A stretch of 64,000 nt of DNA from Brachionus manjavacas (lineage: Eukaryota; Rotifera; Eurotatoria; Ploima; Brachionidae), in contig JAHQIY010000010.1 of assembly GCA_019054805.1 (NCBI GenBank), positions 1,347,501 to 1,411,500 of the forward strand. Reading direction: 5' to 3'. Below the pieces are notes generated by a model, which was not told where the DNA came from, made no database searches, and saw nothing but the letters and a program-made list of their open reading frames with translations. Made by a program: the position numbers and the translations under genes. Each line of letters opens with the position of its first letter. Positions within the stretch are counted from its first letter, which is position 1. Positions 33,037-61,260 of this stretch are shown here, in pieces.

Positions 33037-33389
33037 AATAAACATATTAAATTTTTGGATATCACTTTTGGTTTGACCAAGGAGTCATGAATAAACCAAA
33101 ATTTGGTATCTCATTTTTAGGAATGTATTGACCTAAGTGCTTATAGTAAAATATCTAAAAAGTATACTTAAATGAAAGCTAAATAAATCTAAAAAAATAA
33201 AAATATATGGGTTTCTAAAAATATATAGGACTAAAGGGTGGTACTTTTGATCTTTGAAATAAAATCAACTAAATTATGCTAAAATATAAAATTTTAAAAA
33301 AATTTTATTTTTGAATTTTTTGAATTTTAACTTATTTTAAACCTTTAAAATCGATATTTTTTATCAATTATTAAAGAAAAAAATTATCA

Positions 33390-33720
33390 ACAAATCCAAA
33401 GTGGCCAAAGTATGCTTACGCGAGCTATCTAATCAAAATTTTCAAGCTGGAAAATCAGCATCCGAAATTTATGAAATTATCGGACGTCGCTCAAGTTTAA
33501 GGACGATTCGAAGATGGATAAAAGATTTCAAAGACTCTGTATTTTCTTTTTAAATTTATTTAAACATAAAATTTTAATTATTAAAATTCAGGCTTATAAA
33601 AAGATAAAAATTCCGCTTTTGACTGAGTCACTTGTTAAAAAAAGGCTCAATTTTGCTCAATATTGCCGTGAAGCTCGTACAACTGAGTTCAAAAATCGAT
33701 GGTGGATTAAATAAACAGAA
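33390..33720 (+). pseudogene. Tc1/mariner transposase fragment (palindrome 1, left arm)
   Basis: The plus strand reads NFQAGKSASEIYEIIGRRSS then LRTIRRWIKDF, a HTH typical of Tc1/mariner, followed in a shifted frame by KIPLLTESLVKKRLNFAQYC, the conserved linker before the first catalytic aspartate. The catalytic domain is gone. A copy on the other strand lies at 47055-47385. Confidence 0.65.
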
Positions 33721-33763
33721 TCTAAGAGTTTACACGATTTCTCGAGATGAAGCTGACAATAAT

Positions 33764-34406
33764 GGGTTGTGAAGTTCTTTTCAATTCGATCTATTGAATT
33801 CAAATAAATTTGAATAACTCTTTTACTACAAGAAATAATTTTGTTCTGTAAAATGCTTATTATTTAAGCAATTTTGCTAAATTCAAAAATATATGTCTGC
33901 AAAAACTCTGAAATGGAATTGCACATTGATTGGAATACTTTTTAATGGCGGGCAAAAGACAGAAAATTGTAGAGTATTTTTCAGACTTATTTTACTGGAT
34001 TAAGCTCTTTTAGTGAAAAAGTTATTTAACTTTTTCTGAATTGAAGAGATCGAATTGAAATGAATTTCACAAGGCAAATTGAAGTTTGAGATCAAGATCA
34101 AAAGATCAAAATATATATTGTAATATTTTTTTTAATAATAGAAAAGAAATAAATAAAAGTTAAAAATTTGAATTTTTGTATTAACTGCACCTGAATTATT
34201 TAAATTGTTGATTGTTTTTGTTAAATTAATTATAAATCATTTATTTTGATGTTAATTTGATAATGAACCATTATAATACATAACATGTCAAATAATGTTT
34301 AGTATTTATTTCTTAAAAATTATCAAAATCATTAGATTAATTAAGTTTTAAAATATTAAATGATCTTCATATTTGATTTGAAACTTCAATTTGCCTTTCA
34401 CAACCC
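33764..34406. repeat. MITE in palindrome 1, left arm
   Basis: Ends GGGTTGTGAA and TTCACAACCC are inverted. Internal segments 'caaattgaagtttgagatc' (about 34074) and 'gatttgaaacttcaatttg' (about 34376) are also inverted copies, and an 'ttcaattcgatct' motif repeats inverted at about 33781 and 34045. It is non-coding, with a mirror copy at about 46369-47010. Confidence 0.6.
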
Positions 34407-35626
34407 CTTTGGAAGCGAAGATAACTGTTTACATATTTATGAATTCTTAAGTTAGCTTAATTATTGATTTTAGTTAAGTTTAATTGCTTTTAGTTAATTA
34501 ATTTTTAGAAGACTAAAATTTAGCTGAATAATTTATATCTAAATAAACTATAGAATAAACTCTAATCAGTACTTATTTTTTGTTTTAAGTGTTTACTAGT
34601 TACTTGACTGTAAAATAAATTCTTATAAAATTCATGCTGCTAAAAAAGATTAAAATTATTTTTTTGCTTAAAAAAATTTTTTTAAATCAGTACAATTTTG
34701 AGCTTTAAAAAAAATTTTCCAAGATCGCTTCCATCTAATTTTTCATCTAATTAAAGCACAATTTAATTCTAAAAACAGATAAACATATTTGGTTCCATTT
34801 TTTGTTTAAGTAATGAAAAATTCGATAAAAAGATTTGTAGAATTCATTTATCAAAAATCCTAAAAACTTCATTTATTTTTAGTTATTGAAATGAAAACAA
34901 AGCGTAACATCGTATGTTACACCTTTTAACTACAAATAAAATCTTTAATTTCTTTTTTAATTCAATAAAATCAATAATCAAATAATTTAAACAAGGTTTT
35001 ACCTGTTGCTCCGCTGCCAGAATAATAAAAATAAAAGAAAAAGAAATTAGTATTGATTATTTAATTGATTGATTTATTTTATTTATTATATTGAAAAATT
35101 CTTATTAAAAATTGATTTTAAAATATTTTTTTCATAAGTGTTGATTAAATGATTTAATGAATGTTTCTATACAGTATGTCACAAAAAGTACGAATCAAAC
35201 TTTTTTTTTCTATTTGATTGTTTTTTTGTTCATTTCTTTTCAGTCTTGGTCAGATTTTTCAAAAAACATGCAATTTGCCATCTCTGTTGATTAGTTATTT
35301 TATTTTTACCCATTTTTTCTCTATTTTGTAAGATTTTTAAGTAGTCTTTAAAAAAGCTATTATTTTACAGAAACGATTTTTTTAATTGCAAAAAAACAAT
35401 ATTTTTATTTTTTTCAACATGATTCTAACTTTTTGTAACATACTATACAAACAACATTTCTTTAAAAAAACTTGAATGAATGAATTTCAATGAATTTGAA
35501 TGTTTTTTTCTTTTCTCAATTTTCTTAATTAAAATTTATTTTTAAGTTGTAAAAAAATAAATATATAATATGAAATCTAAAAAAATGAATTAAGACTAAT
35601 TTTACAAATTCAAATTTTACAAATTT

Positions 35627-35850
35627 TTGATCTTGCAAACAAGATCTTTTATAAAAGCACTATTTTCAAATATTAAAGTTAGTTATGGTAAGTTAATGCA
35701 TGAAAATTTTACTTTTTTTCACACATTTGGGTTTTTTAAATATAAAAATTTTTGTTGTTGTTGTAAAAGCAGCTACCATTATGAGGCTAAAGCTACTATC
35801 GCTCCCCAAGTATCCTGCTGTAGCTTATAACTATTATTATTATTTATTTT
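35627..35850 (+). mobile_element. Non-LTR 3' end with stem-loop (left arm)
   Basis: AGCTAC at 35771-35776 and GTAGCT at 35820-35825 bracket a loop, followed by a TATTATTATTATTT tail: the same 3' structure as at 3581-3662. The overlapping short frames here are not convincing genes. The mirror copy is at about 44930-45150. Confidence 0.55.
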
Positions 35851-36099
35851 TTTTTTTTTTGTCTTTCTGGCCCATTTATTTTTTTTAGGCTACTAAAAGG
35901 TGCAATATAGGATTTTACATTGTAATGCATAATTTTTTGGTAATTAAAATATATTTTTTTTTTGAAAAACAATTCGCGCTGAATTTTTCAGCGTCTAGAA
36001 TGATGAGCTTGTCGATGCAAAATATTAACTTTTAAAATATGACCCAAGATATTAATTAATTGAAAGGCATTCTTCTTGTTTAAATTCTTTAAAAACAAG

Positions 36100-37140
36100 T
36101 AAAAGCTACGGAAAGCATGCTTGAGGAAAATTCCTACATGGAAAACTTCTATGGTAGCTAAATGTTCCTAAATCCAGGGACATGCAAGGGTTTTAATTGC
36201 TTTTTTAAGTATTGATAGTTCTTGTATTAATATTTTTTAAATTTTAAATTTTTAAAACTCGTGGCATTAGACTTGAATGCTTCATATTTATTTTTGAATT
36301 GGTGGCCTGTTTTATTTTCTATGCTTTAAGCCAGTAAGTCATTCCACTCTTTGACGGCTCTGTTCGCAAAGAAGTTGGACTTCTGAATGCATTTTGATAG
36401 CTTTCTGGAAAATCTTCTGCTGAAGTCTCTAATTCCCCAAGCCGATATGGTTTGGTATAATAAGATGCATTTAACAAGAGGTTTCATCAAGCTTAAATCT
36501 TCAATTCGGTTGTTAAACTTGAATAATTGGATCAAGTCACCTCTTGTTCGATGTTCGTGAAGCGATGTTAAGCTCAAGCCTGCAATGCGATCCTTATACT
36601 TCCAGTTTCTTATTTTATTGACGAGTTTGGAAGGCCTTTTTTGCACTGTCTCATAGACCTTGATATTCTTCATTTTTGAAAGTAACCAGAAAGCTCGAGC
36701 AGATTCTAGATGGGGCCTTACAAATGCACAGTAAAAAGTTTTACAGATATAAACTGTACTTGAAAGTTCTTTTCAGCTGTCCTGGAATGGCAGTTGCCTT
36801 GTTGGTCTAAATTTTAATTTGCTTGAAAAATTTAAAATTACGGGAGAAAATTACCTTTAGATAATTTTTTTGTAACCACGAAATTCAGAGTACTTTTTTC
36901 ACCGAAATCACCCATAAAACACTTAGTTTTATCGTAAAAAATCTTACCAGATCTGTTTAGCTTAATCACTCTACATTTGCCAAAGTGGACGAGCATACGC
37001 CACCTATTTTTGTTGCTGCGATTTGTTGATATTAATTTACTATCATCAGCAAATAGCTTTACAAGATGATGTACAACTTCAGACATATCGTTGAAAAAGA
37101 TAACAAAAATTAAAGGGCCAAGCGATCATTTTGATACTTA
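36100..37140 (-). mobile_element. 5'-truncated non-LTR retrotransposon (left arm)
   Basis: Minus strand: GPLIFVIFFND and the catalytic LFADDSKLIS at 37140-37040; a gap with shifts; then 36673-36326 with VYETVQKRPSKLVNKIRNWK, LTSLHEHRTRGDLIQLFKFN and the tail FFANRAVKEWNDLLA. Its 3' UTR ends with the AGCTAC/GTAGCT stem-loop (36159-36104). The palindrome's right arm holds the identical copy at 43640-44680, sharing the same truncation. Confidence 0.8.
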
Positions 37141-37846
37141 GACTCTGTCAAAGGACTCAGCAGAACTAAATAAATCTTTTTTTTCTAAAAAATATTTGTA
37201 ATTTCTAATTAAATTTATTTTAAACGTGAGTAAATAATCTAAATAAATTAAAATTTGCAACAAAAAAAAGTTCGCTGCTAATTAAATTTGAAAATTTAAA
37301 ATAGATTATCATTGTGTTTAAAACTGCAATTTTAAAATATCATTTAAAATTTTAAATTTTATAAAATAAAAATCTATCTGGATTCGTATCTTAAATCTCA
37401 TGTTTCAAGTTTTTCTTGAAGTAACACACATTTTTTTTTTGGAGTCTACCCTAAAATTCCTTAATAACCATAAAATATTAACAAAAAAAGGGTTAGAAAA
37501 GAAAAATGTCTTGAAAAAAATTTCGAAAGATTTAGAAAAAAAGAATAAATTCTTCAACGTAGCGACTCCAGGCCTGTTTCTAACTAATTAAGTTTAAATC
37601 CAAAATTCTTTTGAAAAGAATTTATAATTGAAAAATATCTGCCAATTTTACAGATAAAGTAGTTTAATTTTTTGATTGATTTGCAAGTTTTTTTCATGTG
37701 ACTGTAATGCTTTAAGCCTTTTTAAGAATCAATTAATTTGGAAAATTAGATCTATAGCAAACTGTATTGAACGCCTTAAATTTCCAATAGTAGAAAATAG
37801 CTGAACAATTCTGTAAGAGTTTATTTCAACAAAATATAATTCCTGA

Positions 37847-40313
37847 GACTTAAATTAATCATACTATTTTCTCTTATTTCTTGATTAGTAAATTGAGTAT
37901 TTTTATAAGAATCTTACAAACAAGATCTTAAAATTCTCAAGGTGAAAAACTAAAATAAATTTTTCTGTTTATAAGAAGTAAATTGTGCTTTAATTTTTAT
38001 TTTAAAAAATAAGTGGAAAAGATCTTTGCAAATTTTTAATTTTTTTTTAATTTTTTTCTTTTAAATTTTACAGCCAAGTAACTTTTATACAATGCTATGA
38101 ATTTTAGAATTTTCTGATTACGTAAAAACAAGAAAATAATTCTTAAAAAATCATATACATTAAAATCTACATCGCATTTTCAGAAACTTGATTTAGAAAA
38201 ACTAAATTTGTTGGCATTGTCAAATTTGGAACAATGAACGAAAAGAAGAATTCAAAAATTGAACTAACTTATTTTGTTCAAGTCTAAACCTTGTTTTGCC
38301 ACATGTATCAGCTGATACAAACTTTAAATCACCCAAATTAATTCCCGGCAAAGATTCTGAAAGTCTTCAAAGCACTATATTAGTAAACCATTATAATTAA
38401 ATTACAGAGACTTAATTTGGGTGAATTTGGTTGAAGTTTTTATCAGCTGATACATTTGACAGAACGAAGTTTAAACTTAAGCAAAAAAAATTAATTCAAT
38501 TTTTAAATTTTTCTTTTAGTTCTTTGTTCCAAAATTCGGAATGTCAATTTATTTTCAATAACATTTTAAATATTTCTCTGACTGAAAAAGAATTCATTTT
38601 AAACTAATAATAATCGAAAAAATCGAATAAAAATGGAATCATTTTAGTAATACGGACGGTAAATTTAATTTACAAACAAGTATGGCTTTTTATAAAAAAA
38701 AAAAAAAAAATTGTTGACAAAAGGTTCTTGAAGTTTGATGGTTTTTGGAAGATGAATTTGCGTTTTTTACTTATTAGAGTTGAACTAATTTTCAAAAGTG
38801 TTCATATCTGTAAATATTCCTGAAGAGGAGAGAATTGCTTAAAATGACCTTTGTTATTCTTAATGTATGCAGAGTGGAATCTAGCTTTTTCTTAGCCAAA
38901 AAATGAATTTTTTTTCTTTTTTCCTGTTTTTTCGAATCTAATCTAATTTTTTTATTTTCTCAAAATAAAAAAAATTTTGAAAAATTTTAGATTTTACTTT
39001 TTTAATATAAAACTTGATTAATCCAAAAATTGAGGCAAACTAACTCAAAATTCACTAATGAAATTTTAAAAATTTAATTCTGATTTAATGAACTTCCTAA
39101 TAAATTGCTTTTGATAGTACCAGAATGCCTCTACTGGATTTTACTCACAATGACATTTTGAAATAACTTGATTATTTTGTCCGAAGAATTTTGAGTTAGT
39201 TAGTAGGCTTGGAAGAAGGAAAAACAACTGGCATCTTGATAAAAGTTACATTTTTCTAATCAAAATCATTTCCTAATTTGTCTGCAAACACTCGAAGTAG
39301 ATCATTATCAAGGCTTTTTGTTCATTTTCTGAATTAATCAAAGTAATCAAAGTAAACAATCAATTTTCAATCAAATGATTTTTTGAATTTGAAAAAAAAA
39401 TAAATTTAGAAAATAATTTTAATTTGCCTAAAATCATCGAGTTTAACATTTAACTTTATTGTGGTTTAATTTTTTGTGTTTGAATTACAAAATGATCCAA
39501 TGTTGAAATAACATTGAAAAAGTACGATGTTTCAAATTTTTCCAGTTTTTTCCAGTTTCAAAAAAAAAAACAATTTTTAGTTAATTACAAGCATTTTCAT
39601 TTTTCAATAAAATAAATTGACATTCCGAATTTTGGAACAAAGAACTAAAAGAAAAATTTAAAAATTGAATTAATTTTTTTTGCTTAAGTTTAAACCTCGT
39701 TCTGTCAATGTATCAGCTGATAAAAACTTCAACCAAATTCACCCAAATTAAGTCTCTGTAATTTAATTATAATGGTTTACTAATATAGTGCTTTGAAGAC
39801 TTTCAGAATCTTTGCCGGGAATTAATTTGGGTGATTTAAAGTTTGTATCAGCTGATACATGTGGCAAAACAAGGTTTAGACTTGAACAAAATAAGTTAGT
39901 TCAATTTTTGAATTCTTCTTTTCGTTCATTGTTCCAAATTTGACAATGCCAACAAATTTAGTTTTTCTAAATCAAGTTTCTGAAAATGCGATGTAGATTT
40001 TAATGTATATGATTTTTTAAGAATTATTTTCTTGTTTTTACGTAATCAGAAAATTCTAAAATTCATAGCATTGTATAAAAGTTACTTGGCTGTAAAATTT
40101 AAAAGAAAAAATTAAAAAAATTAAAAATTTGCAAAGATCTTTTCCACTTATTTTTTAAAATAAAAATTAAAGCACAATTTACTTCTTATAAACAGAAAAA
40201 TTTATTTTAGTTTTTCACCTTGAGAATTTTAAGATCTTGTTTGTAAGATTCTTATAAAAATACTCAATTTACTAATCAAGAAATAAGAGAAAATAGTATG
40301 ATTAATTTAAGTC
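37847..40313. repeat. Foldback element at the centre of palindrome 1
   Basis: Positions 37847-38555 and 39608-40313 are inverted copies (sums about 78160-78163) around a 1.05 kb loop (38556-39607). Each arm carries two copies of the perfect palindrome TATCAGCTGATA (38306 and 38441; 39711 and 39846). There is no coding sequence. The same core, with a shorter loop, centres palindrome 2. Confidence 0.85.
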
Positions 40314-42928
40314 AATTAATTAGGGAAAGACGAATTGAAGTAGAGCAGATTATTTTAAAATTTGCTGTGGCTATCACTGGATATATTTTTCAAATGTGTA
40401 ATATTTTTATTAATTCTAAGAACATCATGAAGGCTAAATTTGATCTTTAAAAAGAATCTTGTATTTTAAAATAAGAAAATATTTTTATCCTGTTAAAGTT
40501 TATCTTTCTTGTTGTTTTATTTTGAAGACCAAATGAAAAAGTAAAGAAATCTGAATATTTTATTAAAATCTTGGCCATATCGTTAAAATAAAAGAATACG
40601 TTATTTTAAGTAATAAAAGAATACTTATTTCAAAGTCACAAGTTATGACTTGACTTTCTCTTTAAGACATGTGAATTAATCTTGCATTAATATTATTCGA
40701 AGTTTTCAGAAAGAAAACGCAATTCAATAATTTTAAGAAGTTTTTTGATTGATTATTTCCTGTTAACTCATACCATAAACAATACATTACCATAAAAAAA
40801 TTGTTTAACTTATCTCTCAGTCTTCAGTGTAAGCCAAAATGAAATAATTTTTATAATTTTTTAGTGAAACACAACCAGAAAATATTAATTTTAATTTTAA
40901 CTAATATTTCTCTAATCTACAACACACCCGAATACTTAGACCAGTGCTCCGCTGGATCCCGCTTAATTTTTAAATATAATGATTAAAATAACCAAAAAAT
41001 ACAAAAATAAAATAAAATTCTGTTCATCAACTCAGGAGACATATATTGACTAAAAATTTTAAAGACTTTAAAACTTTTAAAGTTTTTCGGATGCTTTTTT
41101 TTTTTAAATTTAAAAGAATAGTCCTTAGAATTTCAGTATTTAGTCAATATTATAAAAAATTTTAATAATCTTAATTTAACTTAAAGTTTATTTTTAAAAA
41201 AAAATTCTATTTTAATTTCTTCTTTTCGTTCATTGTTCCAAATTTGAAAATGCCAACAAATTTAGTTTTTCTAAATCAAGTTTCTGAAAATGCAATGTAG
41301 ATTTTAATGTATATGATTTTTTAAGAATTATTTTCTTGTTTTTACGTAATCAGAAAATTCTAAAATTCATAGCATTGTATAAAAGTTACTTGGCTGTAAA
41401 ATTTAAAAGAAAAAAATAAAAAAAAAATTAAAAATTTGCAAAGATCTTTTCCACTTATTTTTTTAAAATAAAAATTAAAGTACAATTTACTTCTTATAAA
41501 CAGAAAAATTTATTTTAGTTTTTCACCTTGAGAATTTTAAGATCTTGCTTGTAAGATTCTTATAAAAATACTCAATTTACTAATTAAGAAATAAGAGAAA
41601 ATAGTCTGATTAATTTAAGTCAATTAATTAGGGAAAGACGAATTGAAGTAGAGCAGATTATTTTAAAATTTGCTGTGGCTATCACTGGATATATTTTTCA
41701 AATGTGTAATATTTTTATTAATTCTAAGAACATCATGAAGGCTAAATTTGATCTTTAAAAAGAATCTTGTATTTTAAAATAAGAAAATATTTTTATCCTG
41801 TTAAAGTTTATCTTTCTTGTTGTTTTATTTTGAAGACCAAATGAAAAAGTAAAGAAATCTGAATATTTTATTAAAATCTTGGCCATATCGTTAAAATAAA
41901 AGAATACGTTATTTTAAGTAATAAAAGAATACTTATTTCAAAGTCACAAGTTATGACTTGACTTTCTCTTTAAGACATGTGAATTAATCTTGCATTAATA
42001 TTATTCGAAGTTTTCAGAAAGAAAACGCAATTCAATAATTTTAAGAAGTTTTTTGATTGATTATTTCCTGTTAACTCATACCATAAACAATACATTACCA
42101 TAAAAAAATTGTTTAACTTATCTCTCAGTCTTCAGTGTAAGCCAAAATGAAATAATTTTTATAATTTTTTAGTGAAACACAACCAGAAAATATTAATTTT
42201 AATTTTAACTAATATTTCTCTAATCTACAACACACCCGAATACTTAGACCAGTGCTCCGCTGGATCCCGCTTAATTTTTAAATATAATGATTAAAATAAC
42301 CAAAAAATACAAAAATAAAATAAAATTCTGTTCATCAACTCAGGAGACATATATTGACTAAAAATTTTAAAGACTTTAAAACTTTTAAAGTTTTTCGGAT
42401 GCTTTTTTTTTTTAAATTTAAAAGAATAGTCCTTAGAATTTCAGTATTTAGTCAATATTATAAAAAATTTTAATAATCTTAATTTAACTTAAAGTTTATT
42501 TTTAAAAAAAAATTCTATTTTAATTTTAACTTTTCGTTCATTGTTCCAAATTTGAAAATGCCAACAAATTTAGTTTTTCTAAATCAAGTTTCTGAAAATG
42601 CAATGTAGATTTTAATGTATATGATTTTTTAAGAATTATTTTCTTGTTTTTACGTAATCAGAAAATTCTAAAATTCATAGCATTATATAAAAGTTACTTG
42701 GCTGTAAAATTTAAAAGAAAAAAATTAAAAAAAAATTAAAAATTTGCAAAGATCTTTTCCACTTATTTTTTAAAATAAAAATTAAAGCACAATTTACTTC
42801 TTATAAACAGAAAAATTTATTTTAGTTTTTCACCTTGAGAATTTTAAGATCTTGCTTGTAAGATTCTTATAAAAATACTCAATTTACTAATTAAGAAATA
42901 AGAGAAAATAGTCTGATTAATTTAAGTC
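39915..42928 (+). repeat. Tandem array of a 1.3 kb unit (T)
   Basis: The unit starts at 'cttcttttcgttcattgttc' and ends 'attctattttaattt'. Copies: 39915-41217, 41219-42525 and a third cut after about 400 bases (42528-42928). Shifts of about 1303 and 1308 bases superimpose them nearly perfectly. A small GC-rich island ('gtgctccgctggatcccgc') recurs in each full unit. A single full copy occurs at 54289-55590 and inverted at about 52283-53585. No coding capacity seen. Confidence 0.88.
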
Positions 42929-43639
42929 TCAGGAATTATATTTTGTTGAAATAAACTCTTACAGAATTGTTCAGCTATTTTCTACTATTGGAAATTTAAG
43001 GCGTTCAATACAGTTTGCTATAGATCTAATTTTCCAAATTAATTGATTCTTAAAAAGGCTTAAAGCATTACAGTCACATGAAAAAAAAACTTGCAAATCA
43101 ATCAAAAAAATTAAACTACTTTATCTGTAAAATTGGCAGATATTTTTCAATTATAAATTCTTTTCAAAAGAATTTTGGATTTAAACTTAATTAGTTAGAA
43201 ACAGGCCTGGAGTCGCTACGTTGAAGAATTTATTCTTTTTTTCTAAATCTTTCGAAATTTTTTTCAAGACATTTTTCTTTTCTAACCCTTGTTTTGTTAA
43301 TATTTTATGTTTATTAAGGAATTTTAGGGTAGTCTCCAATAAAAAAATGTGTGTTACTTCAAGAAAAACTTGAAACATGAGATTTAAGATACGAATCCAG
43401 ATAGATTTTTATTTTATAAAATTTAAAATTTTAAATGATATTTTAAAATTGCAGTTTTAAACACAATGATAATCTATTTTAAATTTTCAAATTTAATTAG
43501 CAGCGAACTTTTTTTTGTTGCAAATTTTAATTTATTTAGATTATTTACTCACGTTTAAAATAAATTTAATTAGAAATTACAAATATTTTTTAGAAAAAAA
43601 AGATTTATTTAGTTCTGCTGAGTCCTTTGACAGAGTCTA

Positions 43640-44680
43640 AGTATCAAAATGATCGCTTGGCCCTTTAATTTTTGTTATCTTTTTCAACGATATGTCTGAA
43701 GTTGTACATCATCTTGTAAAGCTATTTGCTGATGATAGTAAATTAATATCAACAAATCGCAGCAACAAAAATAGGTGGCGTATGCTCGTCCACTTTGGCA
43801 AATGTAGAGTGATTAAGCTAAACAGATCTGGTAAGATTTTTTACGATAAAACTAAGTGTTTTATGGGTGATTTCGGTGAAAAAAGTACTCTGAATTTCGT
43901 GGTTACAAAAAAATTATCTAAAGGTAATTTTCTCCCGTAATTTTAAATTTTTCAAGCAAATTAAAATTTAGACCAACAAGGCAACTGCCATTCCAGGACA
44001 GCTGAAAAGAACTTTCAAGTACAGTTTATATCTGTAAAACTTTTTACTGTGCATTTGTAAGGCCCCATCTAGAATCTGCTCGAGCTTTCTGGTTACTTTC
44101 AAAAATGAAGAATATCAAGGTCTATGAGACAGTGCAAAAAAGGCCTTCCAAACTCGTCAATAAAATAAGAAACTGGAAGTATAAGGATCGCATTGCAGGC
44201 TTGAGCTTAACATCGCTTCACGAACATCGAACAAGAGGTGACTTGATCCAATTATTCAAGTTTAACAACCGAATTGAAGATTTAAGCTTGATGAAACCTC
44301 TTGTTAAATGCATCTTATTATACCAAACCATATCGGCTTGGGGAATTAGAGACTTCAGCAGAAGATTTTCCAGAAAGCTATCAAAATGCATTCAGAAGTC
44401 CAACTTCTTTGCGAACAGAGCCGTCAAAGAGTGGAATGACTTACTGGCTTAAAGCATAGAAAATAAAACAGGCCACCAATTCAAAAATAAATATGAAGCA
44501 TTCAAGTCTAATGCCACGAGTTTTAAAAATTTAAAATTTAAAAAATATTAATACAAGAACTATCAATACTTAAAAAAGCAATTAAAACCCTTGCATGTCC
44601 CTGGATTTAGGAACATTTAGCTACCATAGAAGTTTTCCATGTAGGAATTTTCCTCAAGCATGCTTTCCGTAGCTTTTACT
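43640..44680 (+). mobile_element. 5'-truncated non-LTR retrotransposon (right arm)
   Basis: Mirror of 36100-37140. FFND and LFADDSKLIS occur at 43680-43740. The 115-codon C-terminal frame at 44105-44452 is identical to its partner in the left arm. The 3' stem-loop is at 44619-44674. Confidence 0.8.
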
Positions 44681-47010: not shown

Positions 47011-47054
47011 ATTATTGTCAGCTTCATCTCGAGAAATCGTGTAAACTCTTAGAT

Positions 47055-50640: not shown

Positions 50641-50779
50641 GAATTATTTAGTAGAGCCTTGTTCATCGACATGGTAGTGGATTGATCAGTGTCAGGAATC
50701 TCGATCGTTAAAATGGCATTTAATGGTGTCTGTTTCTCTAAATCATATGAGGCGATGATCCCGTTTGTTTGAGCCATTT

Positions 50780-51640
50780 TTTGCTATAAGCGATCGACAT
50801 TAGACAAAACTAGTTTTAAATCTCCATTTCGTTTTCCTCAGAATCGTTTCTTTCCGTTATCACATGTCTTGAATTTGAGAGATCTGTTATTTATTGTAGT
50901 CGTTTCAGGCAACTCATTGTTTTTGCGGTCGCGTTCTTGTCGGAGCTTGCGAAAGGCTATTAGTTCGCTTTGCGTGAGGTCCTCGTTTACATAATCGTCC
51001 ATGTACTCATTATTCAGACGCAATGCTCTAGATTTTCGAAGCATTTCCATTTTTGATTCCATGGATTCCATCTCGACTACAACGAGGACTGGCTCCTTTC
51101 TCACTGCGGAAGAGCTGTCAGGTCGTCGACTTATTCTCCTTGCTTTCTTCACTCTAGTACCTGCTATTCCAATATGTATGGCCAGCTTCTTAACAAAATC
51201 AGCTTCTCCATCTTTTCAGCCGGAATTGCTATGATAATGTTATTAATTCGTTCCTCTTTTTTTTTCATTTCGGTTGAAATGGTCGCCATTATCGCCACTG
51301 AATTTTCATCTTTGTGTGCCATTCCAGATGTGATCTTAGACCAGTCGAGCGTTTTGAATGATGCCGGCATTACTGGTCTTCTTTCGAGTGTCTCGACTTG
51401 CGATCTTAGCTCAGCGATTTCAGATTTTAGAACGTTAATGCTCTCATTTTTCTCAGTAACGCACTTACGGTATGCTCCATCAAGCGATCTTATGACAGCA
51501 ATCAAGTCCACTTCCTTAGCGTGAGGATTTCCTGTTCTGCAAGCAGGCTTGGTTGTTCCAAACTTATCACAAAGAGCCACAATAAGAAGAACCCATTCGT
51601 CCGAATTCGAAATCGGATTGGTAAGTTCCATTTTCTTTTT
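50780..51640 (-). pseudogene. Non-LTR ORF1-like protein (left arm)
   Basis: Mirror of 56241-57088, carrying the same frameshift and the same premature TGA. See that entry for the domains. Confidence 0.65.
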
Positions 51641-51663
51641 TAAATTATATTTTGAAAATTTAC

Positions 51664-51869
51664 TATTCAAAATTAAATTTGGAGCATCAATTAAAAATTC
51701 TTGAACTTGTTCAACGCCAAAATCCGGTAATTGATTTTCTCTGTTTATTTCAATCCTTTAGACTCTATTAGCAATGTAAAATACTTCGGTTTCGAGATTA
51801 GTCACTGTGGTCTCCATATTGGACATGCGAGTACCAATATCTGCTACTGATGTCTCCAAATTGGACATT
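51664..51869 (-). repeat. 206-bp coiled-coil-coding repeat, second copy
   Basis: Mirror of 56003-56208; direct-repeat partner of 50437-50640. Confidence 0.65.
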
Positions 51870-52282
51870 CGATCGTCAAGATTCCTCAGATTTTGGTTAT
51901 TTGATTCAAAGAGTTCAAAATTAATTCATTGAAATTCATATTTTTCTAGGAAAAAAATAAACTTTAAGTTTGAAAATTCTTTAAGTGAATAATTTTTAAA
52001 AAATATTTTGGAATACACAATTAAAAAAAACCTTTTCAATTTTAATTTAGATAGACTAAATGGTGGACTTACAAAATACAATTTTAAATTATTCTCTCTA
52101 ATTATTTTAAATTTATATAAAGCAAATTAGCACTGCTAAATTTTGAAGAACACACCGAGATATTATATGCATAATTTAATAGAAATTATGCTTTTATATA
52201 TACTAAAAACCACAGCATTAATCAAAATTTGTCTTCTGAGTTGATTAAAACAATTAAGTTTTTTTCTTTCAATATTAAATTA

Positions 52283-53585
52283 AAATAGAATTTTTTTTAA
52301 AAATAAACTTTAAGTTAAATTAAGATTATTAAAATTTTTTATAATATTGACTAAATACTGAAATTCTAAGGACTATTCTTTTAAATTTAAAAAAAAAAAG
52401 CATCCGAAAAACTTTAAAAGTTTTAAAGTCTTTAAAATTTTTAGTCAATATATGTCTCCTGAGTTGATGAACAGAATTTTATTTTATTTTTGTATTTTTT
52501 GGTTATTTTAATCATTATATTTAAAAATTAAGCGGGATCCAGCGGAGCACTGGTCTAAGTATTCGGGTGTGTTGTAGATTAGAGAAATATTAGTTAAAAT
52601 TAAAATTAATATTTTCTGGTTGTGTTTCACTAAAAAATTATAAAAATTATTTCATTTTGGCTTACACTGAAGACTGAGAGATAAGTTAAACAATTTTTTT
52701 ATGGTAATGTATTGTTTATGGTATGAGTTAACAGGAAATAATCAATCAAAAAACTTCTTAAAATTATTGAATTGCGTTTTCTTTCTGAAAACTTCGAATA
52801 ATATTAATGCAAGATTAATTCACATGTCTTAAAGAGAAAGTCAAGTCATAACTTGTGACTTTGAAATAAGTATTCTTTTATTACTTAAAATAACGTATTC
52901 TTTTATTTTAACGATATGGCCAAGATTTTAATAAAATATTCAGATTTCTTTACTTTTTCATTTGGTCTTCAAAATAAAACAACAAGAAAGATAAACTTTA
53001 ACAGGATAAAAATATTTTCTTATTTTAAAATACAAGATTCTTTTTAAAGATCAAATTTAGCCTTCATGATGTTCTTAGAATTAATAAAAATATTACACAT
53101 TTGAAAAATATATCCAGTGATAGCCACAGCAAATTTTAAAATAATCTGCTCTACTTCAATTCGTCTTTCCCTAATTAATTGACTTAAATTAATCAGACTA
53201 TTTTCTCTTATTTCTTAATTAGTAAATTGAGTATTTTTATAAGAATCTTATAAGCAAGATCTTTAAATTCTCAAGGTGAAAAACTAAAATAAATTTTTCT
53301 GTTTATAAGAAATAAATTGTACTTTAATTTTTATTTTAAAAAATAAGTGGAAAAGATCTTTGCAAATTTTTTATTTTTTTTTTATTTTTTTCTTTTTAAT
53401 TTTACAGCCAAGTAACTTTTATACAATGCTATGAATTTTAGAATTTTCTGATTACGTAAAAACAAGAAAATAATTCTTAAAAATCATATACATTAAAATC
53501 TACATTGCATTTTCAGAAACTTGATTTAGAAAAACTAAATTTGTTGGCATTGTCAAATTTGGAACAATGAACGAAAAGAAGAATT
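52283..53585 (-). repeat. Full T unit, inverted
   Basis: Inverted copy of the 1.3 kb unit described at 39915-42928, pairing with 54289-55590 across the palindrome 2 centre. Confidence 0.85.
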
Positions 53586-54288
53586 CAAAAATTGAACTAA
53601 CTTATTTTGTTCAAGTCTAAACCTTGTTTTGCCACATGTATCAGCTGATACAAACTTTAAATCACCCAAATTAAGTCCCGGCAAAGATTCTGAAAGTCTT
53701 CAAAGCACTATATTAGTAAACCATTATAATTAAATTACGGAGACTTAATTTGGGTGAATTTGGTTGAAGTTTTTATCAGCTGATACATTTGACAGAACGA
53801 AGTTTAAACTTAAGCAAAAAAAAAAAAATTCAATTTTTAAATTTTTCTTTTAGTTCTTTGTTCCAAAATTCGGAATGTCAATTTATTTTATTGAAAAATG
53901 AAAATGCTTGTAATTAACTAAAAATTGTTTTTTTTTTTTAAACTGGAAAAAACTGGAAAAATTTGAAACATCGTACTTTTTCAATGTTATTTCAACATTG
54001 GATACATTTTGTAATTCAAACACAAAATTTGCTTAAGTTTAATTTTTTTTTTTTGCTTAAGTTTAAACTTCGTTCTGTCAAATGTATCAGCTGATAAAAA
54101 CTTCAACCAAATTCACCCAAATTAAGTCTCCGTAATTTAATTATAATGGTTTACTAATATAGTGCTTTGAAGACTTTCAGAATCTTTGCCGGGACTTAAT
54201 TTGGGTGATTTAAAGTTTGTATCAGCTGATACATGTGGCAAAACAAGGTTTAGACTTGAACAAAATAAGTTAGTTCAATTTTTGAATT
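53586..54288. repeat. Foldback core of palindrome 2
   Basis: Same element as 38231-39914 but with the loop reduced to about 230 bases (about 53823-54050). Four TATCAGCTGATA palindromes occur (two per arm). Its two arms agree with each other where they differ from palindrome 1 ('aagtccc' and 'acggag' here, 'aattccc' and 'acagag' there). Confidence 0.85.
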
Positions 54289-55590
54289 CTTCTTTTCGTT
54301 CATTGTTCCAAATTTGACAATGCCAACAAATTTAGTTTTTCTAAATCAAGTTTCTGAAAATGCAATGTAGATTTTAATGTATATGATTTTTAAGAATTAT
54401 TTTCTTGTTTTTACGTAATCAGAAAATTCTAAAATTCATAGCATTGTATAAAAGTTACTTGGCTGTAAAATTAAAAATAAAAAAATAAAAAAAAAATAAA
54501 AAATTTGCAAAGATCTTTTCCACTTATTTTTTAAAATAAAAATTAAAGTACAATTTATTTCTTATAAACAGAAAAATTTATTTTAGTTTTTCACCTTGAG
54601 AATTTAAAGATCTTGCTTATAAGATTCTTATAAAAATACTCAATTTACTAATTAAGAAATAAGAGAAAATAGTCTGATTAATTTAAGTCAATTAATTAGG
54701 GAAAGACGAATTGAAGTAGAGCAGATTATTTTAAAATTTGCTGTGGCTATCACTGGATATATTTTTCAAATGTGTAATATTTTTATTAATTCTAAGAACA
54801 TCATGAAGGCTAAATTTGATCTTTAAAAAGAATCTTATATTTAAAAATAAGAAAATATTTTTATCCTGTTAAAGTTTATCTTTCTTGTTGTTTTATTTTG
54901 AAGACCAAATGAAAAAGTAAAGAAATCTGAATATTTTATTAAAATCTTGGCCATATCGTTAAAATAAAAGAATACGTTATTTTAAGTAATAAAAGAATAC
55001 TTATTTCAAAGTCACAAGTTATGACTTGACTTTCTCTTTAAGACATGTGAATTAATCTTGCATTAATATTATTCGAAGTTTTCAGAAAGAAAACGCAATT
55101 CAATAATTTTAAGAAGTTTTTTGATTGATTATTTCCTGTTAACTCATACCATAAACAATACATTACCATAAAAAAATTGTTTAACTTATCTCTCAGTCTT
55201 CAGTGTAAGCCAAAATGAAATAATTTTTATAATTTTTTAGTGAAACACAACCAGAAAATATTAATTTTAATTTTAACTAATATTTCTCTAATCTACAACA
55301 CACCCGAATACTTAGACCAGTGCTCCGCTGGATCCCGCTTAATTTTTAAATATAATGATTAAAATAACCAAAAAATACAAAAATAAAATAAAATTCTGTT
55401 CATCAACTCAGGAGACATATATTGACTAAAAATTTTAAAGACTTTAAAACTTTTAAAGTTTTTCGGATGCTTTTTTTTAAATTTAAAAGAATAGTCCTTA
55501 GAATTTCAGTATTTAGTCAATATTATAAAAAATTTTAATAATCTTAATTTAACTTAAAGTTTATTTTTAAAAAAAATTCTATTTTAATTT
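54289..55590 (+). repeat. Full T unit
   Basis: Single copy of the 1.3 kb unit, from 'cttcttttcgttcattg' to 'attctattttaattt', adjoining the right arm of palindrome 2. Confidence 0.85.
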
Positions 55591-56002
55591 AATATTGAAA
55601 GAAAAAAACTTAATTGTTTTAATCAACTCAGAAGACAAATTTTGATTAATGCTGTGGTTTTTAGTATATATAAAAGCATAATTTCTATTAAATTATGCAT
55701 ATAATATCTCGGTGTGTTCTTCAAAATTTAGCAGTGCTAATTTGCTTTATATAAATTTAAAATAATTAGAGAGAATAATTTAAAATTGTATTTTGTAAGT
55801 CCACCATTTAGTCTATCTAAATTAAAATTGAAAAGGTTTTTTTTTTAATTGTGTATTCCAAAATATTTTTTTTAAAAATTATTCACTTAAAGAATTTTCA
55901 AACTTAAAGTTTATTTTTTTCCTAGAAAAATATGAATTTCAATGAATTAATTTTGAACTCTTTGAATCAAATAACCAAAATCTGAGGAATCTTGACGATC
56001 GA

Positions 56003-56208
56003 ATGTCCAATTTGGAGACATCAGTAGCAGATATTGGTACTCGCATGTCCAATATGGAGACCACAGTGACTAATCTCGAAACCGAAGTATTTTACATTGC
56101 TAATAGAGTCTAAAGGATTGAAATAAACAGAGAAAATCAATTACCGGATTTTGGCGTTGAACAAGTTCAAGAATTTTTAATTGATGCTCCAAATTTAATT
56201 TTGAATAG
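56003..56208 (+). repeat. 206-bp coiled-coil-coding repeat, copy upstream of ORF1
   Basis: Encodes MSNLETSVADIGTRMSNMET then TVTNLETEVFYIANRV, a clear heptad pattern, followed by a stop and an FGVEQVQEFLIDAPNLIL stretch. Upstream in the same frame is NQNLRNLDD. The same sequence recurs at 57232-57437 in the same orientation, bracketing the ORF1-like gene. The two could be remains of a tandem duplication or short terminal direct repeats. Confidence 0.65.
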
Positions 56209-56240
56209 TAAATTTTCAAAATATAATTTAAAAAAGAAAA

Positions 56241-57088
56241 ATGGAACTTACCAATCCGATTTCGAATTCGGACGAATGGGTTCTTCTTATTGTGGCTCTT
56301 TGTGATAAGTTTGGAACAACCAAGCCTGCTTGCAGAACAGGAAATCCTCACGCTAAGGAAGTGGACTTGATTGCTGTCATAAGATCGCTTGATGGAGCAT
56401 ACCGTAAGTGCGTTACTGAGAAAAATGAGAGCATTAACGTTCTAAAATCTGAAATCGCTGAGCTAAGATCGCAAGTCGAGACACTCGAAAGAAGACCAGT
56501 AATGCCGGCATCATTCAAAACGCTCGACTGGTCTAAGATCACATCTGGAATGGCACACAAAGATGAAAATTCAGTGGCGATAATGGCGACCATTTCAACC
56601 GAAATGAAAAAAAAAGAGGAACGAATTAATAACATTATCATAGCAATTCCGGCTGAAAAGATGGAGAAGCTGATTTTGTTAAGAAGCTGGCCATACATAT
56701 TGGAATAGCAGGTACTAGAGTGAAGAAAGCAAGGAGAATAAGTCGACGACCTGACAGCTCTTCCGCAGTGAGAAAGGAGCCAGTCCTCGTTGTAGTCGAG
56801 ATGGAATCCATGGAATCAAAAATGGAAATGCTTCGAAAATCTAGAGCATTGCGTCTGAATAATGAGTACATGGACGATTATGTAAACGAGGACCTCACGC
56901 AAAGCGAACTAATAGCCTTTCGCAAGCTCCGACAAGAACGCGACCGCAAAAACAATGAGTTGCCTGAAACGACTACAATAAATAACAGATCTCTCAAATT
57001 CAAGACATGTGATAACGGAAAGAAACGATTCTGAGGAAAACGAAATGGAGATTTAAAACTAGTTTTGTCTAATGTCGATCGCTTATAG
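56241..57088 (+). pseudogene. Non-LTR retrotransposon ORF1-like protein
   Basis: The ATG at 56241 starts MELTNPISNSDEW. A coiled coil (about residues 65-90, INVLKSEIAELRSQVETLER) is followed by NNIIIA, the first strand of the RRM-like domain of ORF1 proteins. After a one-base shift near 56650 the frame continues DFVKKLAIHIGI, VKKARRISRRP, and DLTQSELIAFRKLRQERDRK followed by N, the typical end of such proteins. A TGA at about 57031-57033 stands where the frame otherwise continues to 57088. ORF1 proteins bind the element's RNA. Both palindrome arms carry the same two lesions. Confidence 0.7.
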
Positions 57089-57094
57089 CAAAAA

Positions 57095-57247
57095 ATGGCT
57101 CAAACAAACGGGATCATCGCCTCATATGATTTAGAGAAACAGACACCATTAAATGCCATTTTAACGATCGAGATTCCTGACACTGATCAATCCACTACCA
57201 TGTCGATGAACAAGGCTCTACTAAATAATTCATGTCCAATTTGGAAA
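57095..57247 (+). other. Short frame after ORF1
   Basis: ATG, then AQTNGIIASYDLEKQTPLNA, running into the second coiled-coil repeat in the wrong frame. It sits where ORF2 of a non-LTR element would start, but no endonuclease motif is visible before it is cut off. Confidence 0.3.
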
Positions 57248-57437
57248 CATCAGTAGCAGATATTGGTACTCGCATGTCCAATATGGAGACCACAGTGACT
57301 AATCTCGAAACCGAAGTATTTTACATTGCTAATAGAGTCTAAAGGATTGAAATAAACAGAGAAAATCAATTACCGGATTTTTGCGTTGAACAAGTTCAAG
57401 AATTTTTAATTGATGCTCCAAATTTAATTTTAAATGG
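57232..57437 (+). repeat. 206-bp coiled-coil-coding repeat, copy downstream of ORF1
   Basis: Same-orientation copy of 56003-56208, offset 1229 bases, with a handful of differences (for example 'ttggaaacat' for 'ttggagacat'). Confidence 0.65.
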
Positions 57438-58080
57438 TAAAAAATTATTCTTATTTATTTTATTTTTATTTTGTTTAAAAAAAATATATTATTTCTTAGC
57501 AAAAGCTAATAAATACTATCATTTTTATTTTATTTAATAAAAATTAATAATTAAATCTAACATATTGAATTAAACTTTTAATTATGATTTTTTTTTATTA
57601 ATTAAAAGTCCAGGCATTGGTTTGTGAGAGATAATTCTGCTAATTGAAAAACTTAATTAGAGAAATTGTGACCTTGTTAAAATAGAAAAAAAAAATATAT
57701 ATGAATGTTACAGCATTAAAGACCATTCGAATATTCGACCTACCCGAAGATAAACAATTCAAACTATCGGTTTACAAACAAAATGGAGTCAACTAAATCT
57801 AAAACTAAAATCTCGAATTATTTTTAATCACCCTGAGTCCCTAAACCCGGACTGCGCCTCGGACCCCGTTTACTCCACAGTTTGTTTTAAAAAATAGTCA
57901 AAATATGTTTAATTTGGCATAGGATTAATTGAACTAGCTAAAAGGATGAATTTTACTAGATATTAGTTATATTAAAAGATAAAAAGGATGAAATCAACTT
58001 GATAATTTTATTAACTAATAGATAAAATGACAAAACACAATATAAAAATATTTTCTACTAGATAAAAATATTATTTGATA

Positions 58081-58976
58081 CAGTCGAGTCTCATTATAAC
58101 GATGCTGATTAATACGATACTCGCTTTATAACGATATTTTTTTTCATAATTTACAATCCCCAATATTATACATTTTAAATTTATTTGTTAATACGATGTT
58201 TCTTTAATACGATATCTAATTATTACGATAGGTTTGTTCAGGAAAAAACAAACAAATCAGTGCTAATTCATCGTTTTCAATACGATATTGATCTTTTAAA
58301 CAAAAAAACTTGAAATTTCGAATGATTTTAATAAAAATAATCGCACTGTCACAGAACTTGTGAAAAAATATAAAAGATCCCAGAGTACTGTTTCTTCTAA
58401 TAAAGAGAATCGGAAAAAGATAAAAAACTTTTTGAAAATAATTTAATCAATCCTAGCTCTAAAAGAATGAGGAGTTCTAATTATGTTAAAATTGAAATGG
58501 CCCTCGATCACTGGGTAAAATCAGTTATGTCATTTAAATATTACTCTTAACGGTCCATTGATTCAAGTCCAGGCTATTAAATATGCAACTATGCTAAATC
58601 AAACTGATTTTAAAGCTCGCAATGGATGTTTAAACGGATTTAAAAAAAAGGCACAAAATTACCTTTAAAACTATTGCATAGATAAACTACGATTGTATTT
58701 TGACCAAAAGAACGAAGACTGTTCTTTATTCATTGATCAGTTGTCTTAAATGGATCAATTTTGTAGCGTCGATTAGTCTTTTCAAAGTAAAATTGATAAA
58801 TATTTTTCTTTTTAATTTATTTTTTATTTTATAATAAATAATAATTTCCTTAAAAAAAATTTATTTTCAATTTTTTTCTTCCCATCCTTTAACATGCAAA
58901 TTTGATTAATAAGATATTGGTTAATACGATGTCCATTTTTTCCGCCCAAACACATCGTTTTATCCAGACTCGACTG
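58081..58976 (+). mobile_element. Tigger/pogo-like element, degraded (right arm)
   Basis: Mirror of 48900-49791; TA precedes CAGTCGAGTCTC at 58081. The plus strand holds the pogo HTH near 58310-58430 and the CENP-B-type HTH near 58560-58660, with frame breaks. Confidence 0.75.
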
Positions 58977-60079
58977 CATATGTTCACACTTTTTTTTCAT
59001 TCTTACTATGATTAAAGCAAATTTTTTTATTTTGAAACTGAAAATCAATTTAATAAAATATCATTGTGAATTATTTGATTGTGATTTTGATAAATTACTG
59101 TTGAGCCTACCAAAATTGCTTATTTTGTCAAAGGAGCCCTTCCTGGAAAGACAAACTTCCTTTTAAGTCATAAGTTTCAGCCAAACTTGACTTAAAAAAA
59201 ATAAGAAATTTTTATTTTAAAACTTAACAACAAATGAAATGATTGGAGAATATGATTTTTTGAGAAAACAAATTTTTATTAAATCTTCAGGAAATTTTAA
59301 GGACCTTTTATTAAATTCCAAATGGAATTGACAATAATTTAATTTTCTAAAGTAAGCTCACGTAAACTTATTTTTGAGTCACAGATCATGACTTGACTTT
59401 CTCTTTAAGACATGTGAATTAGTCTTTCGTAAATATTATTCGAAATTTTCAGAAAGAAAACGCAGTTCATTAATTCTAAGATGTTTTTTGATTGATTTTT
59501 CCCAGTTAACTAAATTTTAAAGAATCTTGAATGAAAAATTAAAGAAATGTTAAGAGATTTTTAGAGGTTGTCTAAATTTTTTCTGTAAAATTTTCTTTAA
59601 AAGTTTCTTTATATTTCTTTAAAAAGTCTTCAAGATTTCTTTCATTAAGATTAGAAAACGTAAATATTTGTTTATTAATTCCGCACTTAAGGTGTATTTA
59701 TTTATTAATTAAATAATTAAATCTTTATTTATCTCTTGAATATCTCGAGTTTTTTTTTCAAAATAGGTCAAATCATTGAGATTTTTTAAATAATCCTTTA
59801 AGAAACCAAAAATATCTTTTAATTTTTTTAACTGGATTTGAGCTCCTAGCAAAATACGAACAAAAGAGATTTTTTGTTGACAATGTCTTTAGTTTAAGCC
59901 TTTTGGACAATCTATAAAGTTTATGTGAATGTTTAAACCTCTTTCATCATAAAAATAGGGGGAACAGTTTCGACTGGGTAATAATTACGGTGTAGATGAT
60001 CAACTTGATGCAGTAGCCTCTGTGTCAGATCGAAGCCGTTGGATCTAAAATTACCGATTATTTTAGTTTTTTTTTTTCC

Positions 60080-61260
60080 TTATTCACTCCATGTGGAGCA
60101 TAGGGTCATTACTTTTGATTTCCACTCAATTCGATCTTTTGCCTTTACCCTTGCTTCTCCCCATGTCATTCCCATTTCGATAAGCTCTTTCGTGATTGTT
60201 GACCTCGATTTTACTGCTGATCGTCCTACCTTACGTCGCCTTTGAGGTGTCCATTGAAGGGCTCTTTTTTTGGTATCCATGTTTCTTTCATTCTAAGTAC
60301 ATGCCCGAGCCATCGCAATCTTTTGTTCTTAATGCATTGACTTAATGGCTCTGAATTTTTTCTTCTCAAGTCAGCATTAAACAATGTCTCAGCCCAGTGT
60401 ATCCCAAGAATCCTCCGCAGGCTTCCCGTGTGGAAGATGTTAAGACTTTTCCTGTCAGATTCACACATCCCCCAACATTTACTTCCGTACATCAGTGTTG
60501 CTTTTACTACACTGTGGTATAGTTTAAATTTTTTTTCCTTACTGTAGCTGGTTGACTTCCATACTGGTTTGAGTCTAGCTAAGGCACTCTTTGCTTTAGC
60601 AAGTCTATTCTTAATGTCTCTGTGTGTTTCCAACGTTGTACTGATAGTGCTACCTTGGTATGTGAATTCACTTACACACTCGATGGTGATCGATGCATCC
60701 AATTTGGTATTTATGCACATAACTTTCGTTTTGGCCCCATGTACTTCGAGACCAGTTGGTTCAGCGTTGTTCGCCAACTCTTGCGTCTTTATATGCATAT
60801 GTGCTTCTGTATTAGATATTAGCACCAGATCGTCCGCAAAGTCTAAGTATTCAAGCTTTGCTGTTTATACCCATTGTGTACCCCTCGCACTGGCAGTTTT
60901 TTTCTTCATGATAAAGTCAATCAGTATTATGAATAGTGTCGGAGAGAGAACGCACCCTTGTCTGACTTCTGTACACACTTTGAAGCTCTTAGATAGTCCT
61001 TTTTCCAGAATCACGCTACACTCGAATTTCTCATAGAAGAGTTTTATCAAGTTCACTATCTTCTGTGGCAGGCCATAGGATCTAAATTTGGCCCACAAGG
61101 TTTCTCTGTGAATGCTATCAAAGACTTTCTTGAAGCCAATGAAGTTATGAAGGCGTTATGCAGTTTGTTGCTGCAGAGCGCCTTGCTTGCTATTGGTAAC
61201 AGTTTTATTCCTCGCCAATTGTCGCAAATCATTTTTTTACCTTTCTTTGGGAGCTTGAGT
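60080..61260 (-). pseudogene. Non-LTR endonuclease-reverse transcriptase, 5'-truncated
   Basis: Minus strand, from 61260: NWRGIKLLPIASKALC, a deletion, FIGFKKVFDSIHRETLWAKF, VRQGCVLSPTLF, a stop, YLDFADDLVLIS (catalytic FADD), FTYQGSTIS, YHSVVKATLMYGSKCW, LRRILGIHWAE, RLRWLGHVLRMKE and, after a shift, ALQWTPQRRRKVGR, MTWGEARVKAKDRIEWKSKV, ending TLCSTWSE. The first motif A aspartate is replaced by glycine (FIGFKK for FIDFKK). The last 18 codons and the 3' UTR fall inside palindrome 2, so its left arm (47735 onwards) carries only that end. Confidence 0.85.

What the first reader, a model, noticed from the sequence alone, without database searches (positions are those of the whole stretch)
33037..60141. 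Two giant palindromes abutting with no spacer
14.7 kb (33037-47734) and 12.4 kb (47735-60141) inverted duplications lie side by side. Mirror positions keep a constant sum along each. Both are centred on the same foldback core. Natural palindromes this large are rare outside sex chromosomes, amplicons and telomeric structures.
Basis: seen in the sequence. Interest (0 to 1): 0.9.

Follow-up and report, generated by a model that had tools for sequence, protein, structure and literature searches.

The report
Twin palindromes from one repaired break
Two large near-identical mirror-image DNA stretches lie back to back in what looks like a rotifer genome; old mobile-element copies show that only the seam between them is new, so they were probably made together by one faulty local repair or copying event, although an assembly error cannot be excluded without the raw reads.

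Summary
33037-47734 and 47735-60141 are abutting inverted duplications with arms of about 5.2 kb (19 mismatches) and 6.1 kb (4 mismatches). The first is not a simple palindrome: its core carries extra copies of the foldback unit, about 1-3% diverged.

The decisive test used old repeats lying across the edges. 5 of 5 relatives run through the left edge, 5 of 5 through the right edge, and all 10 stop within 6 bases of 47734|47735. The outer edges are ancestral; the seam is the only new edge. So this is neither a transposon insertion nor two unrelated palindromes: L-A-core-B'-R became L-A-core-A'|B-core-B'-R.

Best explanation: a break in the hairpin-prone core; each end folded back, copied its own flank, and the two tips were joined without homology. 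A 15-nt templated stutter at the second turn fits. Rivals: duplication plus inversion between the cores, template switching, misassembly.

Three more near-identical palindromes were found in the assembly, two of them homologous to each other; the one testable case has one new edge. Organism inferred Brachionus-like.

The parts
32800..33036 (.). ancestral left flank (L): part of a dispersed repeat that continues without interruption into arm A
   Evidence: 5 of 5 repeat relatives (L004-L008) span 33037
33037..37846 (+). arm A, flank-specific part (4.8 kb), with repeat relics
   Evidence: dispersed repeat about 34941-35753; weak RVT_1 match, below cut-off, to the mirrored frame 43653-43940
37847..38555 (+). 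inverted-repeat unit 'a' on the A side of core 1
   Evidence: 99.3% inverted match to 39609-40313: 1 mismatch, 3 gap openings in 709
38556..39608 (+). loop segment S of core 1; its right end (about 39462-39608) is a dispersed short repeat
39609..41218 (+). Q1: inverted-repeat unit plus about 0.9 kb of B'-side sequence
   Evidence: 98.6% inverted match (together with the last 137 bases of S) to pal2 54027-52277
41210..42526 (+). Q2: tandem copy of most of Q1, joined through the 9-bp microhomology TTTTAATTT (41210-41218)
42518..42928 (+). Q3: third, partial copy, entered through the same 9-bp word (42518-42526), leading into A'
42929..47734 (-). arm A' (inverted copy of A)
47734..47735 (.). the only new edge: A' tip joined to B tip with no shared base
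   Evidence: 10 of 10 repeat relatives stop within 6 bases of it; 0 of 38 other listed matches to 47000-48500 cross it by more than 4 bases (a capped list)
47735..52276 (-). arm B (inverted copy of B'), beginning with a cut-off 3' end of a LINE
52277..53889 (-). core 2, left unit (P2L)
53890..54027 (-). 138 bp of S, inverted relative to core 1
   Evidence: 39472-41218 matches 54027-52277 inverted
54028..54066 (+). turn point: TTTGCTTAAGTTTAA at 54028 and again at 54052, reverse complement of 53804-53818 (templated stutter)
54043..60141 (+). right arm B' including the right core unit P2R (about 54035-55590)
60142..61150 (-). ancestral right flank (R): LINE reverse-transcriptase region whose 3' end lies inside B'
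   Evidence: 5 of 5 LINE relatives (L050-L054) span 60141 (three of them shown aligned); family extent; weak RVT_1 match below cut-off

Best explanation
The two palindromes are one rearrangement of a single ancestral locus L-A-core-B'-R. The core was already rich in inverted repeats. The most likely route is a double-strand break inside the core. The left end folded back on its inverted repeat and copied A into A'. The right end snapped back near 53804-53818 and copied B' into B. After roughly 5-6 kb of synthesis on each side the two copied tips were joined with no homology at 47734|47735. SHOWN: both outer edges are ancestral, the seam is the only new edge, the arms are near-identical, there is a stutter at the second turn, and core copies are more diverged than the arms. 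INFERRED: the break, fold-back priming on both ends, and non-homologous joining.
For: Edge test: 5 of 5 and 5 of 5 relatives span the outer edges and all 10 stop within 6 bases of the seam (one search shows three LINE relatives aligned); 0 of 38 other listed matches to 47000-48500 cross the seam by more than 4 bases (capped list). The seam has no shared base. Core 1 has the layout needed for snap-back: a / S loop / Q. The turn in pal2 carries a 15-nt templated stutter copied from 53804-53818, and the core strand folds strongly (z -53.7 against 20 shuffles). Outside two short patches the flank-specific arms differ at 1 site in A (4810 bp) and 1 in B (4542 bp), whereas core copies mostly differ by about 1-3%. 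The two arm lengths are similar (5.2 and 6.1 kb). A one-ended counterpart exists: at C13:328697-346506, 8 of 11 relatives cross the right edge (one by only 12 bases; 3 do not reach it) and 0 of 12 cross the left (10 stop within 6 bases of it). In yeast, short templated inverted duplications form at breaks by foldback, one end synthesised and the other captured by end joining (PMC11724301, abstract and passages).
Against: Counting the two patches, A and A' differ at 13 sites against 1 for B and B', which is not what equal age alone predicts; the patches were set aside after seeing them and are unexplained. Q3 should be a copy of 'a' but differs from it at 6 sites in about 400, plus the bases next to the joint, while 'a' matches Q1 (1 mismatch in 709), so a later conversion of 'a' by Q1 must be added. 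The end of S is present in both cores, so the ancestral core must already have held two copies of it and several Q units. Described fold-backs usually give hairpin-capped or dicentric chromosomes, and the yeast templated events are mostly 5-34 bp. I found no described two-ended kilobase version in 9 literature searches, of which only 55 and 56 were aimed at fold-back repair. No reads were available.
Confidence: 0.45

Rival explanations
1. Tandem duplication (or excision and re-insertion of a circle) of the single segment A-core-B', followed by or combined with an inversion between the inverted-repeat cores. Flipping the middle of A-core-B'|A-core-B' between the cores gives exactly A-core-A'|B-core-B'.
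For: Predicts the same single new edge and two ancestral outer edges. Near-identical direct pairs exist in this genome, e.g. C6 copies 26 kb apart, 99.8% over 3.7 kb with 0 mismatches.
Against: The second core should hold a full complement of units; it has a minimal 215-bp turn with a templated stutter and lacks most of S, so an extra deletion is needed. S is inverted between the two cores, needing a further flip.
Confidence: 0.2
2. Assembly artefact: a real local duplication or heterozygous structure resolved wrongly at the inverted-repeat cores, or chimeric reads.
For: No reads could be examined; such palindromes recur in this assembly; artificial palindromes from wrong scaffolding are a known risk (PMC7953838, passages).
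Against: Arms are not identical (19 and 4 mismatches), so one sequence was not simply folded on itself. The seam joins two points not adjacent in the ancestral locus and must come from somewhere. The cores are 5.1 and 3.3 kb, bridgeable by reads of about 6 kb or more. The contig is 3.66 Mb in a 61-contig assembly.
Confidence: 0.22
3. Serial template switching in one replication event (MMBIR/FoSTeS type): the fork turned at the core, copied A', jumped to the end of B', copied B and turned again.
For: 9-bp microhomology reused at two jumps inside core 1 and a 15-nt templated stutter.
Against: Needs two turns plus one long jump that lands with no homology; the Q1/Q2/Q3 copies are more diverged than the arms, so the 9-bp jumps look older than the event.
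Confidence: 0.1
4. A transposable element with giant terminal inverted repeats inserted here.
For: Near-perfect long terminal inversions; repeat relics in the arms.
Against: Old repeats run uninterrupted through both outer edges (10 of 10). Apart from the window's own copies, only partial matches to the arms were listed (only the best 40 and 39 candidates were scored).
Confidence: 0.03

Closest known systems
Fold-back inverted duplications in the human germline (PMC3907307, passages read)
   Same: near-perfect inverted copies around a loop, with short inverted homology at the turn
   Different: the human cases go with terminal deletions, translocations or rings through a dicentric chromosome; here it is interstitial and two-sided, with both outer flanks kept and one seam
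Break-induced inverted duplications at natural inverted repeats in yeast (PMC10622511, passages)
   Same: break near an inverted repeat, fold-back priming
   Different: those copy towards the chromosome end through a hairpin-capped dicentric; here copying stopped after 5-6 kb
Templated inverted insertions at yeast breaks (PMC11724301, abstract and passages)
   Same: foldback synthesis from one end, the other end captured by end joining
   Different: mostly 5-34 bp and one-ended; here kilobases and, on this reading, both ends
DUP-TRP/INV-DUP (PMC10766186, passages)
   Same: inverted repeats plus a low-homology junction
   Different: copy number 1-2-3-2-1 there; arms A and B are each present twice here
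Palindromes reported for Adineta vaga and Folsomia candida (PMC7953838, PMC5490193, passages)
   Same: large inverted duplications in small invertebrates
   Different: those are gene blocks found by synteny (one F. candida palindrome has synonymous divergence 0.2); here young, gene-poor and mapped to the base

Membership tests
Fold-back inverted duplication | inverted copies flanking a loop | tested here: met
Fold-back inverted duplication | short inverted homology or templated scar at the turn | tested here: met
   709-bp inverted repeat in core 1; 15-nt stutter in core 2
Fold-back inverted duplication | per palindrome, one ancestral outer edge and one new edge | tested here: met
   the window pair share one new edge; the C13:328697 palindrome has one of each; C10:3209779 not informative
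Fold-back inverted duplication | arose from a double-strand break | not testable with these tools
   inference only
DUP-TRP/INV-DUP or ODIRA inverted triplication | a segment present three times with the middle copy inverted | tested here: not met
   arm A has two full copies, arm B two; no third full copy in the window plus 10 kb left and 20 kb right. Core units are present more often, but as older, diverged copies
Transposon with giant terminal inverted repeats | insertion boundaries interrupt older sequence | tested here: not met
   10 of 10 relatives span the outer edges
Y-type ampliconic palindrome | gene-bearing arms kept alike by conversion | tested here: inconclusive
   no host gene among the arm frames scanned (7 of the 11 frames of 75 aa or more listed for 42500-54000); patchy differences and the a/Q1 match hint at conversion
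Assembly artefact | no single molecule spans the centres or the seam | not testable with these tools
   no reads held

The most novel reading that the evidence does not exclude
This rotifer's germline repeatedly makes fresh palindromes by kilobase-scale fold-back repair of breaks in hairpin-prone repeats: one-ended repair gives single palindromes with one new edge (C13), and two-ended repair gives abutting twin palindromes with one shared seam (this window).
Probability: 0.33. Interest if true: 0.72.

Novelty: new variant of a known kind. Interest (0 to 1): 0.5.

Why it matters
Large palindromes are best known as unstable products in cancer or as sex-chromosome structures (general knowledge). 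Here old repeats lying across the edges tell ancestral from new joints to within a few bases, showing that two palindromes share one new seam. If reads confirm it, this is a natural example of a break whose two ends both appear to have copied themselves before being joined. The other palindromes in the assembly would form a set on which fold-back repair in an animal genome could be tested. If reads refute it, it warns of an assembly error that the edge test alone does not catch.

Tried and rejected
Transposon insertion was rejected by the edge test. ODIRA or inverted triplication was rejected because neither arm is present three times. Small local inversions as the cause of the two mismatch patches in the A arms were tested and do not explain them (the best inversion lowers 8 mismatches to 5 and 4 to 3). 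Eight of the 13 flank-specific A-arm mismatches lie in 66 bp, which 0 of 20,000 random placements reproduced; unexplained. The outer edges of the C10:3209779-3217036 palindrome had no listed relatives reaching them, so its new edge could not be told. Inverted repeats of 300 bp or more were found in 0 of 35 other repeat loci (126,896 bases; 35 of the 56 loci then held, the 21 left out being the window's own places, its flanks and the C10 palindrome). These loci are 3-4 kb each and could not show wider palindromes. A genome-wide palindrome count was not possible. No tRNA and no Rfam match at gathering score lies in the window. The assembly's paper was not identified: led to a monogonont paper using PCR-amplified Nanopore reads (PMC11954553, passages), which I did not match to this genome.
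Full report
WHAT IS THERE. The window lies in a 3.66-Mb contig (C10:1347501-1411500) of an unnamed 114-Mb, 61-contig genome. The window is 73% A+T (base counts). A sulfotransferase gene at 61830-62879 has its best match in Brachionus plicatilis at 71% identity, so the organism is inferred to be a Brachionus-like monogonont rotifer. Self-alignment confirms both palindromes at the stated coordinates. Pal1 arms differ at 19 sites and pal2 arms at 4, plus 11 and 8 small indels.

ANATOMY. Call the flank-specific parts A (33037-37846) and B' (about 55591-60141). Pal1 reads A - a - S - Q1 - Q2 - Q3 - A'. Here a and the start of Q1 form a 709-bp inverted repeat (1 mismatch, 3 gap openings) around a 1.05-kb loop S. 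Q1 and Q2 each carry about 0.9 kb of sequence that in pal2 leads towards B. The Q1/Q2 and Q2/Q3 joints both use the same 9-bp word TTTTAATTT. Pal2 reads B - unit - 138 bp of S inverted - turn - unit - B'. At the turn the sequence TTTGCTTAAGTTTAA appears at 54028 and again at 54052; it is the reverse complement of 53804-53818. The core strand folds into a very strong hairpin.

THE EDGE TEST. Each outer edge lies inside an older dispersed repeat. Five relatives, the best five beyond the window's own, were found through their match to the A' end (L004-L008); 5 of 5 continue through 33037 into the left flank. Five relatives of the right-flank LINE, the best five beyond the window (L050-L054), 5 of 5 continue through 60141 into arm B', where the LINE's 3' end lies (three shown aligned). 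All ten stop within 6 bases of the seam 47734|47735. Of the 38 other matches to 47000-48500 listed (a capped list), none crosses the seam by more than 4 bases. So the locus was once L-A-core-B'-R, the outer edges are untouched, and the seam is the only new edge. The native continuations on both sides share no base at the seam. This argues strongly against an inserted element and against two independent palindromes.

AGES. In the flank-specific arms, outside two short patches, A differs from A' at 1 site and B from B' at 1 site in 4.8 and 4.5 kb. With the patches counted the numbers are 13 and 1, so equal age rests on setting the patches aside, and their cause is unknown. Most core units differ from one another by about 1-3%, so a multi-copy, inverted-repeat-rich core probably predates the event. 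Unit 'a' matches its near neighbour Q1 (1 mismatch in 709) better than its mirror partner Q3 (6 in about 400, plus the bases next to the joint), which suggests later exchange between a and Q1.

MECHANISM. Three routes yield the observed order with one new seam: two-ended fold-back repair, duplication followed by inversion between the cores, and serial template switching. I prefer the first: core 1 has the a-S-Q hairpin needed for snap-back, core 2 has a minimal turn with a templated stutter, the two arms are similar in length, and the seam is blunt. It needs extra assumptions (conversion of a by Q1; an ancestral core with two copies of the S end). Duplication plus inversion needs an extra deletion in core 2 and a flip of S. 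Fold-back at breaks is established in human and yeast work (PMC3907307, PMC10622511, PMC11724301; passages read). I did not find a described two-ended kilobase version in nine searches of the held library; only two of these were aimed at fold-back repair, so this is a weak negative.

OTHER PALINDROMES. I fetched three places elsewhere where repeat searches returned mirrored pairs; 3 of 3 were palindromes: C10:3209779-3217036 (arms 3.5 kb, 99.4%), C13:328697-346506 (7.5 kb, 99.7%) and C13:645293 to at least 655000 (at least 4.7 kb, 99.6%, cut off by the end of the fetched stretch). They were chosen because they looked mirrored, so this is no estimate of frequency; another possible mirrored pair (C3:8459655/8460425) was not fetched. 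The two C13 cases are homologous to each other, so they are not independent. For the first C13 palindrome, 8 of 11 relatives cross the right edge (one by only 12 bases; three do not reach it) and 0 of 12 cross the left (10 stop within 6 bases of it): one ancestral and one new edge, as a one-ended fold-back predicts. For the C10 palindrome the edge test gave no information. Against a claim that palindromes are everywhere, 0 of 35 short repeat loci held an inverted repeat of 300 bp or more.

LIMITS. No reads are held, so misassembly keeps a probability of about one in five. Unequal arms, a seam between points that were not neighbours, and cores of 5.1 and 3.3 kb argue against it but do not exclude it. 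The arms contain repeat relics: reverse-transcriptase-like frames with weak, below-cut-off Pfam matches, and a LINE-ORF1-like frame judged by eye. No host gene appeared among the arm frames scanned (7 of the 11 frames listed). No function is claimed.

Noticed in passing
C10:3209779-3217036 (L055/L056): Another palindrome, arms 3.46 kb at 99.4% (4 mismatches), spacer 345 bp.
   Followed up: partly
C13:328697-346506 (L057/L058): Palindrome with 7.5-kb arms at 99.7% and a 2.8-kb spacer; right edge ancestral, left edge new.
   Followed up: yes
C13:645293-655000 and beyond (L059): Palindrome homologous to the one at C13:328697 (99.5-99.7% over 3.7 kb), whose arms include that palindrome's spacer; further copies of the same MULE at 635008 and 639896.
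   Followed up: partly
C6:2312541 and C6:2338464 (L025/L026): Direct pair 26 kb apart, 3.7 kb aligned with 0 mismatches and 5 gap openings: a very recent direct duplication.
   Followed up: partly
34658-34723 and 37438-37487 (with mirror sites): Two short patches hold 12 of the 13 flank-specific A-arm mismatches; not explained by small inversions.
   Followed up: partly
L040 1123-2953 (C10:1412623-1414453): A diverged (95-97%) copy, in pieces, of part of arm B, inverted relative to B', about 5 kb beyond the right edge.
   Followed up: no
50431-50640 and 51659-51868 (mirrored at 56003-56212 and 57232-57441): 210-bp direct repeats (98%) enclosing about 1 kb with LINE-ORF1-like frames (resemblance by eye; no Pfam match above cut-off).
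   Followed up: no
29318-31888: MULE-type transposase frame and a DDE_Tnp_1_7 frame 1-4 kb left of the palindrome; the MULE has 98-99%-identical copies on other contigs, so it was probably active recently.
   Followed up: no
C30:211734-423951: 13 listed copies of the A-edge repeat, several at about 2.15-kb spacing: tandem arrays.
   Followed up: no
L040 9407 to L041 633: Tandem array with a period of about 161 bp beyond the window's right end.
   Followed up: no
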